A stretch of DNA of 64,000 nt from Pseudobdellovibrionaceae bacterium (GTDB lineage Bacteria; Bdellovibrionota; Bdellovibrionia; Bdellovibrionales; Bdellovibrionaceae). Location: assembly GCA_019637875.1 (NCBI GenBank), contig JAHBUW010000010.1, positions 62,001-126,000 of the forward strand, written 5' to 3'. The notes under the pieces were generated by a model. That model was given only the letters and a program-made list of their open reading frames with translations. It ran no database searches and was not told the origin of the DNA. Below, in pieces: positions 56,429 through 60,997 of the stretch; position 1 is the stretch's first letter, and each line of letters begins with the position of its first letter. Both the position numbers and the translations under genes were made by a program.

Positions 56429-56651
56429 TTTAACCCCCTGAAATGGTTGATTTTTATGCAGCATTGGATAAAACCCCGGGGGCCCCTCTGTCACCCGCCC
56501 TCCGGGGGTGGGTCCGAGATGAAAACCAAGCGCCAGAGGCCTCCTCCAGCCGCATTTACCTGTGGCGTTATTGCAAAATGCCCGGTTTTCAATTTGGCCT
56601 GCCGCTCCATGTTTGCTTCCGCGTTGGAAAATCTGTAGACCTTCTGCACCT

Positions 56652-57278
56652 ATGAAAAGAGCTGGTAAGATTCCGCGTTTTAAAATGCAACGTCGTCTGA
56701 TGACCGAACTCCCGGGCCTGGGTAAAGCTGGCGCTCTGGAACGGAAACCCTATCCTCCGGGCCAACACGGCCAACAACGGAAGAAGTTCTCCGAATTCGG
56801 TCTTCAGCTTGAAGAAAAACAGAAGATCCGCGTCCACTACGGACTGCGCGAGACTCAACTCCGTCGTTTCGTCGTCAAGGCGAAGTCGGGTTCGAGCGAT
56901 AACTGGGTCGCGTCTTTGGCTTCGCTCCTTGAGCGTCGTTTGGACAACCTGGTGTTCCGCCTTGGATTCGCACCTTCGATCCCGTCGGCACGTCAGATGG
57001 TTTCGCATCGTAAGGTCATGGTTAACGGCAAAATCGTTAACGTGAAATCTTACGTCGCGAAAGTTGGTGATGTGATCACCCTGACTCAACGCGGACTGGA
57101 AGGCCAAGACTTCCTGAAGGCGCAGATGGCTCCCCGTCTGACTCTGCCGAACTACCTCACCGTTGAAAAAGCGGATGCGGGCGTCACCGGTAAAGTCATC
57201 GACAGTCCGACCGTCGGCGACATTCCTTTCCCCTTCGATGCGGGAACATTCACAAGCTTCTACTCGGGACTGAAGTAA
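56652..57278 (+). CDS. rpsD: 30S ribosomal protein S4
   Basis: 208 residues from ATG 56652. PYPPGQHGQQRKKFSEFG and EKQKIRVHYGL are S4 hallmarks, followed by the S4 RNA-binding domain (RRLDNLVFRLGFAPS, ARQMVSHRKVMVNGK). S4 nucleates 30S assembly on 16S rRNA. The zinc-binding Cys residues of some S4 proteins are absent (C-minus type). It stands alone, outside the alpha operon, with a strong terminator, so regulation through an S4 leader is possible but no leader structure could be established. Confidence 0.97.
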   Translation: MKRAGKIPRFKMQRRLMTELPGLGKAGALERKPYPPGQHGQQRKKFSEFGLQLEEKQKIRVHYGLRETQLRRFVVKAKSGSSDNWVASLASLLERRLDNLVFRLGFAPSIPSARQMVSHRKVMVNGKIVNVKSYVAKVGDVITLTQRGLEGQDFLKAQMAPRLTLPNYLTVEKADAGVTGKVIDSPTVGDIPFPFDAGTFTSFYSGLK

Positions 57279-57416: not shown

Positions 57417-57490
57417 GGGTAGCATCTACTTTCCGGAAAGTAGCACGTACCGCGTGCGGTACCATCTACCGCACGCGGTACGTGGTACCC
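57417..57490. repeat. 74-base cluster of nested palindromes
   Basis: A perfect 18-base palindrome centred on TTTCCGGAAA lies at 57427-57444. Next to it are two perfect 18-base arms (57444-57461 and 57467-57484) separated by CCATC. Each arm is itself almost palindromic (GTACCGC..GCGGTAC). GGGTA opens and TACCC closes the block. It lies between the rpsD terminator and the stop of the leftward rhodanese-like gene. Could be a REP/MITE-like repeat or a compound minus-strand terminator; no T-run follows. Confidence 0.85.
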
Positions 57491-58434
57491 TATTTCAGGT
57501 CTTTGGGTTCGAGGAAGAGGTCGCTCGGGCCGGCGCAGGCGCAGCTCGCTTGCAGGCCGAGGTCGCGAAGGACCAGCGTCAGGTGGCCGGCCATTTCGCC
57601 GAAGGGATCGGTGACGACGACCGGAATCAGATTGGGGTTGTCGGAGCTGGGTTCGCGCGCGGCGGGTTGGGTCAAGCCGACGTCGCCCGAAGTTGCGCCC
57701 GAGAAGAGCGCGCGCAAAGCCATGGGATTCGTTTTTAGCATGCGGAACAGATCGGATTGAGTGAAGCGCACGCGCTGGGCGGCGCCGAATTGCATCTGCT
57801 GCGGCCACTTGATGTCGCGGTCTTTCACCGCCACTTCCACCAAATAGAATTTGCGGCCACTCTTCACGCGCTCGGTGAACTTCGCGCGGGTCTCGAGCAA
57901 TGTTTCGTTCGCCTCGGGCTTCCAGACCGGGGCTTCTTTCGGCGGCGGGATCTCGCCCAGCTGAAGCGCGGGACGGAAATCCGCGGCGTTCTGGAAATCA
58001 GTGCGGGTCACGCCCAGATAACGGAGCGTCCACGCGAGACGTCCCTCTTCCCCTTCGCCCTCTCCGCCACGACCGAGCACGAGAACTTTGGAATCAGGCG
58101 AGATCCCCATCCGGGCCAAGCGGCGCGTGTGAAAGAAGAGATCCCCCTCGAGCGAGTTCGGACGGGGCGCGAGGCGGCGTGTGAAATCGCGCCAGTCCAG
58201 GCGCTGGGCTTGTTTGATCGGCGCGGTGGCCGCGACGAAAGCGGGACGCGCATCAAGGATGATGACCTGCTCGCCGACCGCCTGGCCATCTGCGGCCGAC
58301 TCCGGAATGCCGGTGCCGGCGGGATTCTCCAGAACCGGCGTGCTTTCTGAGACCTTCGTGGGGCCGCCCGCGCAAGCGCCGAGGATCGCGACCAGCGCAG
58401 AGAGGGCAACGAATTTCATCTGAAAGGGCGTCAT
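57490..58434 (-). CDS. Lipoprotein with rhodanese-like domain lacking the active-site Cys
   Basis: 314 residues, ATG with AAGGAGGCCCC upstream. Lipobox LGAC (Cys about 21). Residues about 55-150 follow the rhodanese pattern (VIILDARPAFVAATAPIKQAQRLDW split here, then SKVLVLGRGGEGEGEEGRLAW), but the loop that should begin with catalytic Cys reads GRGGEG. A second poorly preserved domain (about 185-300) resembles it, as in tandem rhodaneses (PVVVTDPFGEMAGHLTLVL). Likely a non-catalytic binding protein in the envelope. Late CACAG near the C terminus is not in the loop position. Confidence 0.75.
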   Translation of the reverse strand: MTPFQMKFVALSALVAILGACAGGPTKVSESTPVLENPAGTGIPESAADGQAVGEQVIILDARPAFVAATAPIKQAQRLDWRDFTRRLAPRPNSLEGDLFFHTRRLARMGISPDSKVLVLGRGGEGEGEEGRLAWTLRYLGVTRTDFQNAADFRPALQLGEIPPPKEAPVWKPEANETLLETRAKFTERVKSGRKFYLVEVAVKDRDIKWPQQMQFGAAQRVRFTQSDLFRMLKTNPMALRALFSGATSGDVGLTQPAAREPSSDNPNLIPVVVTDPFGEMAGHLTLVLRDLGLQASCACAGPSDLFLEPKDLK

Positions 58435-58639
58435 GGGGCCTCCTTGAAAGCCCCTTCATTTTTACGAAGGACCGCGAGAATGTAAAGACAATGGCGCCGC
58501 CGAGGGATCTAAAAACGGATCTGATCCGTGAAGGCGCAGTGATCCGAGACGCCGTCCACAAACTCATCGGCCCCTCGCCTTCCGAGACCGTGCGCGGCCT
58601 GAATATCGATTTCTTCGCATATCAGCATAGGGCGTGTCC

Positions 58640-59293
58640 TCAATTCGTGAAAATCGGCAGGACCGTCAACCGGTCGCCGTTGATCTCGATTTCGAAACCG
58701 GTTTCGCGGAAGCGCTGCACGTGGTACTTTGGGTCGACGCAGGCCGGGGAAAAGCGGCACAGACCGTTGATGACCTTCCGGTCCCCCGTGACGAAATAAA
58801 TCGGCGTGTCGCGGGTCCCGGACAGCGCCAGCAGCTCAGCGATAATATTCCGATCGCCGCGGCCGCGCCCCCCACCGATGTTCGCCTCTTCGAGAATACG
58901 CAAAGTTTCAGGCTTCGGAGCATGCCGGAAGACAGGGAAACGTCCCGAGAGAACTCCGGCGTCCATGACTTCGACTTCGCTGCGAATCGTGCCGACCATC
59001 CCGATGCGGTCAAAGATGTCCTGCCGAGCAAAAAATTGCGGGGTCGTCGTCTCGAAATGCCGGGCCAACGACTCGAACATCGCCGTCCGAGCGCCATCCC
59101 TCGGGACGGACAAGCTGACCTCCACAAGCACATTGATCAGATTGGTATCGAGGAAAACATCGGCCGCGGAAGAACGGCGTGAGCCCGCACCGAACATCGG
59201 GAGGTGATGCACGCCCACGCAACGCGACTGCGCCAGGGCTTCCGAACCCATCCAAAGGCTAAAGAAAAAGATCAGGAACGTCTTCCAGTACAT
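58640..59293 (-). CDS. Exported PIN-like domain protein
   Basis: 217 residues from ATG 59293, which opens a signal peptide (hydrophobic core, ALAQS, about 22); the ribosome site is weak. The mature part follows the PIN nuclease pattern: first Asp in DVFLDTNLINVL (Asp49), a middle acidic helix GRGDRNIIAELLAL (Asp147) and TPIYFVTGDRKVI (Asp171). PIN proteins are metal-dependent RNases, usually cytoplasmic toxins or rRNA-processing enzymes. An export signal is unusual. No antitoxin gene is adjacent. Two Cys near the C terminus may form a disulfide. Confidence 0.75.
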   Translation of the reverse strand: MYWKTFLIFFFSLWMGSEALAQSRCVGVHHLPMFGAGSRRSSAADVFLDTNLINVLVEVSLSVPRDGARTAMFESLARHFETTTPQFFARQDIFDRIGMVGTIRSEVEVMDAGVLSGRFPVFRHAPKPETLRILEEANIGGGRGRGDRNIIAELLALSGTRDTPIYFVTGDRKVINGLCRFSPACVDPKYHVQRFRETGFEIEINGDRLTVLPIFTN

Positions 59294-59470: not shown

Positions 59471-60997
59471 TTAGGCTTTCTTCGAGTCGTCGGCAGCTTT
59501 GTTCAGGCCGGATTTGATCTTCATCGTCGGGAACAACAGGATGTCGCGGATCGAGGGGCGATCGGTCAGGACCATCACCAAGCGCTCGATACCGAGGCCC
59601 ACGCCGCCTGTCGGGGGCATGCCGGAGTCGATCGCCAGGATGAAATCCTCGTCCATGGGATGTGCTTCTTCGTCGATCGTGCGTTTCGCTTCTTGCTCCT
59701 TCAGTCGATTGTACTGCTCTTCGGGATCGTTCAATTCCGAATAGGAATTGCCGAGCTCCATACCGCAGACAAAGGGTTCGAAACGTTCGACCAGTGCCGG
59801 ATTCGACCGATGCACTTTGGTCAAAGGCGAGATCTCGATGGGGTGATCCATGACGATCGTCGGCTGGATACACTCCTTCTCGGCCGTCGCTTCGAAAATC
59901 TTCATCACCATCTCGCCGCGCGAGAGCGGCTTTTCGATGTCGACGCCGTACTTGCGGCAAGCCTGGAAAAGCTCGTCGAGCGATGCCTTTTCGGGATCGA
60001 TCTTGCCGTACTCGCGGCAGCCGTCGTAAACGGTCAAGCGGCGCCACGGGGGCGTGAAGTCGATCTCGGTGCCTTGGAACGTGACCTTCATCGAACCGGT
60101 CACTTTTTCGGCGACGGTCGCGACCAGGTTTTCGAAACGTTTCATCTGATCATTGTAGTCCGTATAGGCTTCGTACCACTCCATCATCGTGAATTCGGGA
60201 TTATGGGTGCGGTCGATGCCTTCGTTACGGAAGTTGCGGCCAATCTCGAAGACCTTTTCAAAACCGCCCACCACCAAACGTTTAAGATAAAGCTCGGGCG
60301 AGATCTTGAGATACAACTTCATATCGAGAGCGCGGTGGTGCGTATCGAAGGGATGCGCCGAGGCGCCGCCGTACACGGGCTGCAGGACCGGCGTTTCGAC
60401 CTCCATGAAGCCTTCGTTTTCCATCCAGGTGCGGATCTCGCGCACGATTTTCGAGCGTGCGACGAAGACCTTGCGCGACTCTTCGTCCGAGATCAGATCC
60501 AGGTGGCGGTGACGGTATTTGATTTCGACGTCCGCGATGCCGTGGAACTTCTCGGGCAAGGGCTCGAGAGTTTTCGTCAGGATCTCGAACTTCGTGCAGT
60601 GCAAAGACAATTCACCCCGCTGCGTGCGGAAGACGAAACCCTCGATCCCGACGATGTCGCCGAGGTCGATGAGGTTAAACGCCGTGCGCTCGGTCTCGGT
60701 GAGTTCTTCGTTACGGAAATAGACCTGCATGGAGCCGGTCTGATCCTGGATATTGAAGAACGACGCTTTCCCCATCGCCCGCAAAGTCATGAGTCGGCCC
60801 GCGACGCGGAACTTCGACTCTTCCTTTTTCTCCCCGTTTTGCAAAGCTTGGAACTCCGCTTTCAATTGCGCGAGATTGGCGTTGCGCTCGTACTTGTACG
60901 GGAAGGGGTTGATCCCTTTCCCGCGCAGTTCGGTGAGCTTGCGGCGCTTTTCGGCGCGCAGGGGATTTTCATTACCGGGTGTATTCACGTCGCTCAT
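59471..60997 (-). CDS. lysS: Lysyl-tRNA synthetase, class II
   Basis: 508 residues, close to E. coli LysS (505). The N-terminal OB-fold anticodon-binding domain (about 55-160) precedes the class II core: motif 1 region around VETPVLQPVYGGASAHPF, motif 2 FRNEGIDRTHNPEFTMMEWY (a 20-residue stretch), and motif 3 GVGLGIERLVM. It charges tRNA-Lys. It begins 13 bases after the aldolase stop on the same strand, so the two share an operon. Confidence 0.97.
   Translation of the reverse strand: MSDVNTPGNENPLRAEKRRKLTELRGKGINPFPYKYERNANLAQLKAEFQALQNGEKKEESKFRVAGRLMTLRAMGKASFFNIQDQTGSMQVYFRNEELTETERTAFNLIDLGDIVGIEGFVFRTQRGELSLHCTKFEILTKTLEPLPEKFHGIADVEIKYRHRHLDLISDEESRKVFVARSKIVREIRTWMENEGFMEVETPVLQPVYGGASAHPFDTHHRALDMKLYLKISPELYLKRLVVGGFEKVFEIGRNFRNEGIDRTHNPEFTMMEWYEAYTDYNDQMKRFENLVATVAEKVTGSMKVTFQGTEIDFTPPWRRLTVYDGCREYGKIDPEKASLDELFQACRKYGVDIEKPLSRGEMVMKIFEATAEKECIQPTIVMDHPIEISPLTKVHRSNPALVERFEPFVCGMELGNSYSELNDPEEQYNRLKEQEAKRTIDEEAHPMDEDFILAIDSGMPPTGGVGLGIERLVMVLTDRPSIRDILLFPTMKIKSGLNKAADDSKKA

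What the first reader, a model, noticed from the sequence alone, without database searches (positions are those of the whole stretch)
58640..59293. PIN-like nuclease domain carrying an export signal
The mature part shows PIN-type acidic positions (Asp49, Asp147, Asp171) in the order DxN, GDRN, TGD, but the protein begins with a signal peptide. PIN RNases are normally cytosolic toxins or rRNA processors with an antitoxin or housekeeping context; here there is neither. An exported RNase would fit degradation of foreign or prey RNA, or a contact-dependent effector.
Basis: partly seen in the sequence, partly recalled or inferred. Interest (0 to 1): 0.62.

Follow-up and report, generated by a model that had tools for sequence, protein, structure and literature searches.

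The report
Exported PIN-like nuclease of Bdellovibrio relatives
A small protein that looks like a PIN-type RNA-cutting enzyme carries a signal for export from the cell, and in related predatory-type bacteria its gene always sits next to an exported carrier-like protein whose relatives bear toxin domains, so it may be an RNase aimed at other cells.

Summary
Window 58640-59293 (-) is a real 217-aa gene with an N-terminal signal peptide (likely cleavage ALA|QS) and PIN-type motifs in order. No database family matches it. Relatives were found only in the same bacterial family: four genomes of one genus, including Bdellovibrionaceae bacterium UBA2351 and Bdellovibrio sp. 28-41-41. All five proteins keep a hydrophobic N terminus, the PIN acidic positions, and exactly three mature cysteines. 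The five-member profile matches a VapC/PIN profile as well as the accepted PIN_4 family does, and no column shuffle reached that score. AlphaFold models were too poor to test the fold.

New finding: in all four relatives the gene adjoins a standalone exported module of about 590 aa, in three genomic contexts, once in a 4-base-overlap pair. Homologues of that module form the N terminus of longer exported proteins across the phylum, with unrelated C-terminal domains (ADP-ribosyltransferase, HExxH-type, others). That is a polymorphic-toxin-like design. In at least one relative the pair lies just downstream of Tad-type genes and an RHS protein. The window's genome lacks the module, so its copy is an orphan.

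Best reading: an exported metal-dependent RNase, effector or digestive, acting on other cells' RNA. Catalysis, secretion and target are untested.

The parts
58640..59293 (-). CDS, 217 aa, exported PIN-like protein (stop codon 58640-58642)
   Evidence: homologues in four genomes; profile match to relatives 95.5% probability, score 57.6 vs shuffle maximum 19.6.
59231..59293 (-). Signal peptide, residues 1-21, proposed cleavage ALA|QS
   Evidence: Sequence features and hydrophobic N terminus in all five members. No dedicated signal-peptide predictor was available.
58769..59161 (-). PIN-like core, residues 45-175
   Evidence: hhalign to VapC/PF01850 profile covers this span with the motifs in register; positive control.
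59147..59149 (-). Asp49, first PIN acidic position (DTN)
   Evidence: Invariant in the family; aligned with the VapC DT(N/S) motif.
59009..59011 (-). Asp95, probable counterpart of the PIN Glu
   Evidence: Aligned with conserved Glu (RER/KEI) of relatives by MAFFT; hhalign places it differently, so tentative.
58853..58855 (-). Asp147, third PIN acidic position (GDRNIIAE)
   Evidence: Invariant; aligned with VapC D..i.A.
58781..58783 (-). Asp171, fourth PIN acidic position (FVTGD)
   Evidence: Invariant; aligned with VapC T.D.
59219..59221 (-). Cys25, invariant cysteine just after the signal peptide
   Evidence: Invariant; each mature family member has exactly three Cys.
58739..58759 (-). Cys179 and Cys185 (CRFSPAC), invariant, likely a disulfide
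   Evidence: Invariant; three Cys in every mature member. The disulfide itself is inferred.
58515..58529 (-). Terminator-like hairpin followed by T run, downstream of the gene
   Evidence: Consensus scan; not evidence of function on its own.

Best explanation
The gene encodes an exported, metal-dependent PIN-type nuclease, most likely an RNase. The signal peptide takes it out of the cytoplasm, where it is harmless to its maker, which explains the missing antitoxin. The oxidising envelope would form a disulfide among its three conserved cysteines, and the folded enzyme would cut RNA of other cells. In sister lineages it is made with a standalone copy of an exported module that elsewhere carries toxin domains at its C terminus, so there it is probably a split effector of a polymorphic-toxin-like system of this phylum. 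In the window's genome the module is missing, and the protein probably works alone as a secreted or periplasmic RNase, for digesting foreign or prey RNA. Shown: the gene, family, conserved motifs and cysteines, N-terminal export signature, pairing and module architecture. Inferred: nuclease activity, RNA as substrate, release, delivery and target.
For: PIN: the family profile against a VapC/PF01850 profile scores 28.6, against a maximum of 16.9 in 200 column shuffles. Five accepted PIN_4 proteins score 26-36 on the same profile, and non-PIN families score at most 15.4. Invariant residues include D49, N51, D147, T169, D171. Export: hydrophobic N terminus in all five members, three Cys in every mature member. 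Effector link: adjacent to the standalone module in 4 of 4 relatives and three contexts, with a 4-base overlap in one. The module is homologous to the N terminus of long exported proteins (98.3%, 393 columns, score 117 vs shuffle maximum 19.8) that carry an ADP-ribosyltransferase domain (PF03496, E 1.2e-23), HExxH motifs or other C-termini. In L013 the locus adjoins Tad-type and RHS genes. Tad-like Kil systems serve prey killing in predatory bacteria (PMC8460266).
Against: Structure prediction did not recover a confident PIN fold (pLDDT 36 and 55), and the fold searches gave nothing. No Pfam or NCBIfam family passes its threshold. Without the window protein, the four relatives score only 19.8 against PIN. 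The window's genome has no copy of the module. No assay was possible.
Confidence: 0.55

Rival explanations
1. A nutritional RNase: a periplasmic or secreted scavenging nuclease that feeds the cell on RNA from lysed or digested cells, unrelated to any delivery system; the pairing in the other genus is incidental to this copy.
For: The window copy is an orphan without the module, between housekeeping genes. Extracellular nuclease activity is documented for Bdellovibrio (review PMC7174725).
Against: Very patchy distribution (5 of 369 genomes of the phylum) is odd for a general nutritional role. Adjacency to an effector-type module in all four relatives.
Confidence: 0.25
2. An exported protein with PIN ancestry or a different fold that no longer cuts RNA (for example a binding partner of the module).
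For: No confident fold; marginal PIN_4 match in only one member (E 0.12); D replaces E at the probable second acidic position.
Against: The acidic positions and flanking motif residues are among the few invariant ones; the PIN profile match is as good as that of accepted PIN_4 proteins.
Confidence: 0.15
3. A cytosolic or inner-membrane-anchored PIN RNase in which the hydrophobic N terminus is an uncleaved anchor with the domain facing the cytoplasm.
For: The N terminus has only one positive charge, one relative (L003) has no AXA-like site, and no cleavage predictor could be run.
Against: AXA sites after the hydrophobic stretch in four of the five members including the window protein, three invariant cysteines, no antitoxin, and partner proteins that also begin with signal-peptide-like sequences.
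Confidence: 0.05

Closest known systems
VapC-type PIN RNases (PF01850)
   Same: Order and spacing of the acidic motifs (DT[N/S], D..I.A, VT.D); profile-profile match.
   Different: VapC is cytosolic, about 130 aa and encoded with an antitoxin. This protein has a signal peptide, three invariant cysteines, a C-terminal extension predicted as a beta hairpin, and no antitoxin.
PIN_4 / PIN-PhoH proteins (PF13638)
   Same: One relative gives a weak PIN_4 hit (E 0.12); DTN, DNRILA-like and VTKD-like motifs.
   Different: PIN_4 proteins found here are about 450-aa proteins (PIN plus a further domain) present in nearly every related genome, including the window's own; this one is standalone and rare.
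Polymorphic toxin systems
   Same: In relatives the gene is paired with an exported module whose homologues carry varied C-terminal domains, including an ADP-ribosyltransferase.
   Different: PIN domains were reported not to be used in polymorphic toxins (PMC3482391). Here the PIN part is a separate protein, not a C-terminal tip, and no immunity gene was identified.
Tad-like Kil apparatus of predatory bacteria (PMC8460266)
   Same: In L013 the pair lies downstream of CpaB/CpaC/TadA/TadB-type genes (named by eye) and an RHS protein.
   Different: Not shown to be the Kil system; the contexts in G023 and G079 and the window lack Tad genes nearby; Kil has not been shown to secrete toxins.

Membership tests
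PIN nuclease superfamily | Ordered acidic residues at motif positions (D...E...D...D) with DT[N/S] and VT.D contexts | tested here: met
   D49, D147, D171 invariant; second position D95 where relatives have E, register tentative.
PIN nuclease superfamily | Detectable sequence-profile relation to accepted PIN families | tested here: met
   Score 28.6 vs shuffles max 16.9; equal to PIN_4 positive control 26-36. Weaker (19.8) without the window protein; no curated Pfam cut-off reached.
PIN nuclease superfamily | PIN fold | tested here: inconclusive
   AlphaFold models of low confidence (pLDDT 36 and 55, three-sequence alignments); no fold match.
PIN nuclease superfamily | Metal-dependent nuclease activity | not testable with these tools
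   Needs an assay.
VapBC toxin-antitoxin system | Adjacent antitoxin gene and cytosolic toxin | tested here: not met
   No small antitoxin-like gene seen beside it in the window or beside its relatives; signal peptide present.
Polymorphic toxin system | Variable C-terminal toxin domains on a shared exported N-terminal module | tested here: met
   Met for the module family in the phylum; not for the window genome, which lacks the module.
Polymorphic toxin system | Toxin domain fused to the module | tested here: not met
   The PIN protein is always separate, next to a standalone module.
Polymorphic toxin system | Cognate immunity gene | tested here: inconclusive
   No obvious candidate beside the gene in the window or relatives; no specific test was possible.

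The most novel reading that the evidence does not exclude
A PIN-fold RNase has been recruited, as a separately encoded exported effector paired with a polymorphic-toxin-like carrier module, into the arsenal that Bdellovibrio-type bacteria use against other cells, possibly together with a Tad-like apparatus. This would be an exported use of a fold otherwise known from cytosolic toxin-antitoxin and housekeeping roles.
Probability: 0.3. Interest if true: 0.75.

Novelty: new variant of a known kind. Interest (0 to 1): 0.52.

Why it matters
PIN nucleases are a large nuclease group known from the inside of cells; a comprehensive survey of polymorphic toxins stated that they are not used there (PMC3482391). 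An exported PIN family tied to a toxin-carrier-like module in bacteria related to known predators would widen where this fold acts. It would also name candidate effectors for contact killing by predatory bacteria, where the toxins are still unknown (PMC8460266). The module family with its interchangeable C-terminal domains may be the more general find.

Tried and rejected
EEP-nuclease remnant downstream (58512-58628, peptide ending SDHCAFTDQIRF): searched in 40 genomes, only chance-level matches (E 0.2 or worse). The stretch overlaps a terminator-like hairpin. Dropped.

Viral, phage or plasmid origin: no relatives in IMG/VR, phage or plasmid collections.

Apparent hits in G002 and G270 lie in unrelated proteins and are chance matches.

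EndoU family survey: the PF14436 search found nothing in the 40 genomes or in the control genomes, so it is uninformative.

Structure: two AlphaFold jobs gave weak models. The Foldseek PDB, VIA-align and BFVD searches on the second model gave no significant match and cannot be read for or against PIN.

Single-sequence profile comparison of the window protein alone to PIN is not significant (scores 12.7 and 16.2). The PIN case rests on the family profile and the invariant positions.

Defence-system and phage families: only chance-level hits.

Full report
What was checked. The reported ORF is real: window 58640-59293 on the minus strand, 217 aa. Its codon-position GC (0.59, 0.45, 0.74) matches that of neighbouring genes. 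The ordered PIN motif appears in 10 of 20,000 shuffles of its mature part and in no other non-overlapping window ORF. The N terminus reads MYWKTFLIFFFSLWMGSEALA|QS, with a hydrophobic stretch and an AXA site. No dedicated signal-peptide predictor was available, so export rests on these features and on conservation in relatives.

Where it occurs. It has one copy in its own 4-Mb genome. There is no match in Pfam, NCBIfam, phages, plasmids or viral contigs, and the only PDB sequence hit is a designed repeat protein at chance level. In 369 genomes of the phylum only five hold it: the window's own and four of one other genus of the same family. Two loci carry names: Bdellovibrionaceae bacterium UBA2351 (L013) and Bdellovibrio sp. 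28-41-41 (L014). The window's genome is therefore a member of the same bacterial family. Whether it is itself a predator was not tested. Homology of the window protein to the four is firm: hhalign 95.5%, score 57.6, against at most 19.6 for 100 shuffles.

Is it PIN? The five members share 17 invariant columns, among them D49, N51, D147, R148, T169, D171 and three cysteines. The mature family profile was compared with a PF01850 (VapC-type) profile built from sequences of related genomes found (19 extracted, those over 100 aa used). It scored 28.6, with the motifs in register. None of 200 column shuffles exceeded 16.9. Five PIN_4 proteins, an accepted PIN family, scored 26-36 on the same test, and non-PIN protein families at most 15.4. 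The weaknesses: single sequences do not reach significance, the four relatives without the window protein score 19.8, and one member alone shows a marginal PIN_4 hit (E 0.12). Two AlphaFold jobs on three-sequence alignments gave mean pLDDT 36 and 55, and fold searches returned nothing usable. The PIN assignment is thus probable (my estimate 0.8) but not proved by structure.

Is it exported? Every member begins with a hydrophobic segment, followed by an AXA-like site in all but L003. After it, every member has exactly three cysteines, all invariant. This fits an oxidising compartment. None has a clear lipobox by eye. Export is likely (my estimate 0.9).

Context in the window. Upstream on the same strand is lysS (59471-60997); downstream a lipoprotein gene (57490-58434), after a terminator-like hairpin at 58529-58515. 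Larger genes further along are housekeeping (gltX, cysS, uvrB, uvrC, recG). No antitoxin and no partner were seen.

Context in relatives, the main new finding. In all four relatives the gene adjoins a gene for an exported protein of about 590 aa starting YDWLRSSVNEFW. Orientation is divergent in three genomes. In G079 the genes run the same way and overlap by four bases (reading coordinates), which suggests co-translation. The surroundings differ (three contexts), so the pair moves as a unit. This module is absent from the window's genome. A broader profile found the module at the N terminus of longer exported proteins (about 670-990 aa as read here) in other genera and families of the phylum. 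Independent profiles of the standalone and the long forms match with 98.3% probability over 393 columns, score 117 against at most 19.8 for shuffles. The long forms end in different domains: an ADP-ribosyltransferase (PF03496, E 1.2e-23, L095), HExxH-bearing domains (L098, L099), weak DUF5636-like (L096, L102), and others unknown. This is the layout of polymorphic toxins. In the PIN-bearing genomes the module lacks such an extra domain and the PIN protein is encoded beside it. A split effector is the simplest reading, but physical association is not shown.

In L013 the pair follows genes that read as CpaB, CpaC, a TadA-type ATPase, TadB, then an RHS-repeat protein (RHS confirmed by Pfam; Tad names are by eye). 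L014 begins inside the same arrangement, so its Tad genes lie off the contig and were not seen. In G023 a neighbouring exported protein is a sub-threshold EndoU match (E 0.0058). Tad-like Kil systems are needed for contact-dependent prey killing in Myxococcus and are conserved in Bdellovibrionales; their toxins are unknown (PMC8460266). The link is suggestive only.

How it probably works. Made with a signal peptide, the protein leaves the cytoplasm, so no antitoxin is required. It folds with a disulfide (inferred) and cuts RNA with a metal ion held by the Asp cluster (inferred from PIN chemistry). In the relatives it may be carried or aided by the module. In the window's genome it acts without it, so a secreted or periplasmic RNase for foreign or prey RNA is the more cautious role there.

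Known and new. PIN domains were described as not used in polymorphic toxins and known only from toxin-antitoxin systems in that comparison (PMC3482391, as of 2012). Literature searches held here found no exported PIN effector since, though most subscription journals are not held. I rate it a new variant of a known kind.

Noticed in passing
L095:1135-3417, L098:1006-3717, L099:835-3345, L096:1006-3513, L102:955-3351, L097:1-2580, L023:5013-7760, L024:4678-7629: A family of long exported Bdellovibrionota proteins shares an N-terminal module (C..(D/E).KYGKG-like motif and glycine-rich hydrophobic segment) and differs in C-terminal domains, one an ADP-ribosyltransferase, two with HExxH. It looks like a polymorphic effector family with no Pfam model for the shared module.
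   Followed up: partly
L015:10678-11454 (G023): Next to the PIN relative lies another exported protein with a sub-threshold bacterial EndoU nuclease match (E 0.0058), so two exported candidate RNases may sit side by side.
   Followed up: partly
L013:5761-7782: An exported RHS/DUF6531 protein followed by a small exported peptide sits between Tad-type genes and the PIN/module pair; the small peptide recurs in L014, and a similar RHS protein lies near the module in L024.
   Followed up: no
L013:10897-12588 and L014:3375-4946: A long protein with a coiled-coil look and paired cysteines follows the PIN gene in these two relatives only; no Pfam match.
   Followed up: no
window 58512-58760 (-): Open frame ending SDHCAFTDQIRF resembles an EEP-nuclease C terminus by eye, but no relative was found and it overlaps a terminator-like hairpin; probably chance.
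   Followed up: yes
window 56562-57278 (+): An S4-like ribosomal protein gene (by eye) that appears to stand alone, away from a ribosomal operon.
   Followed up: no
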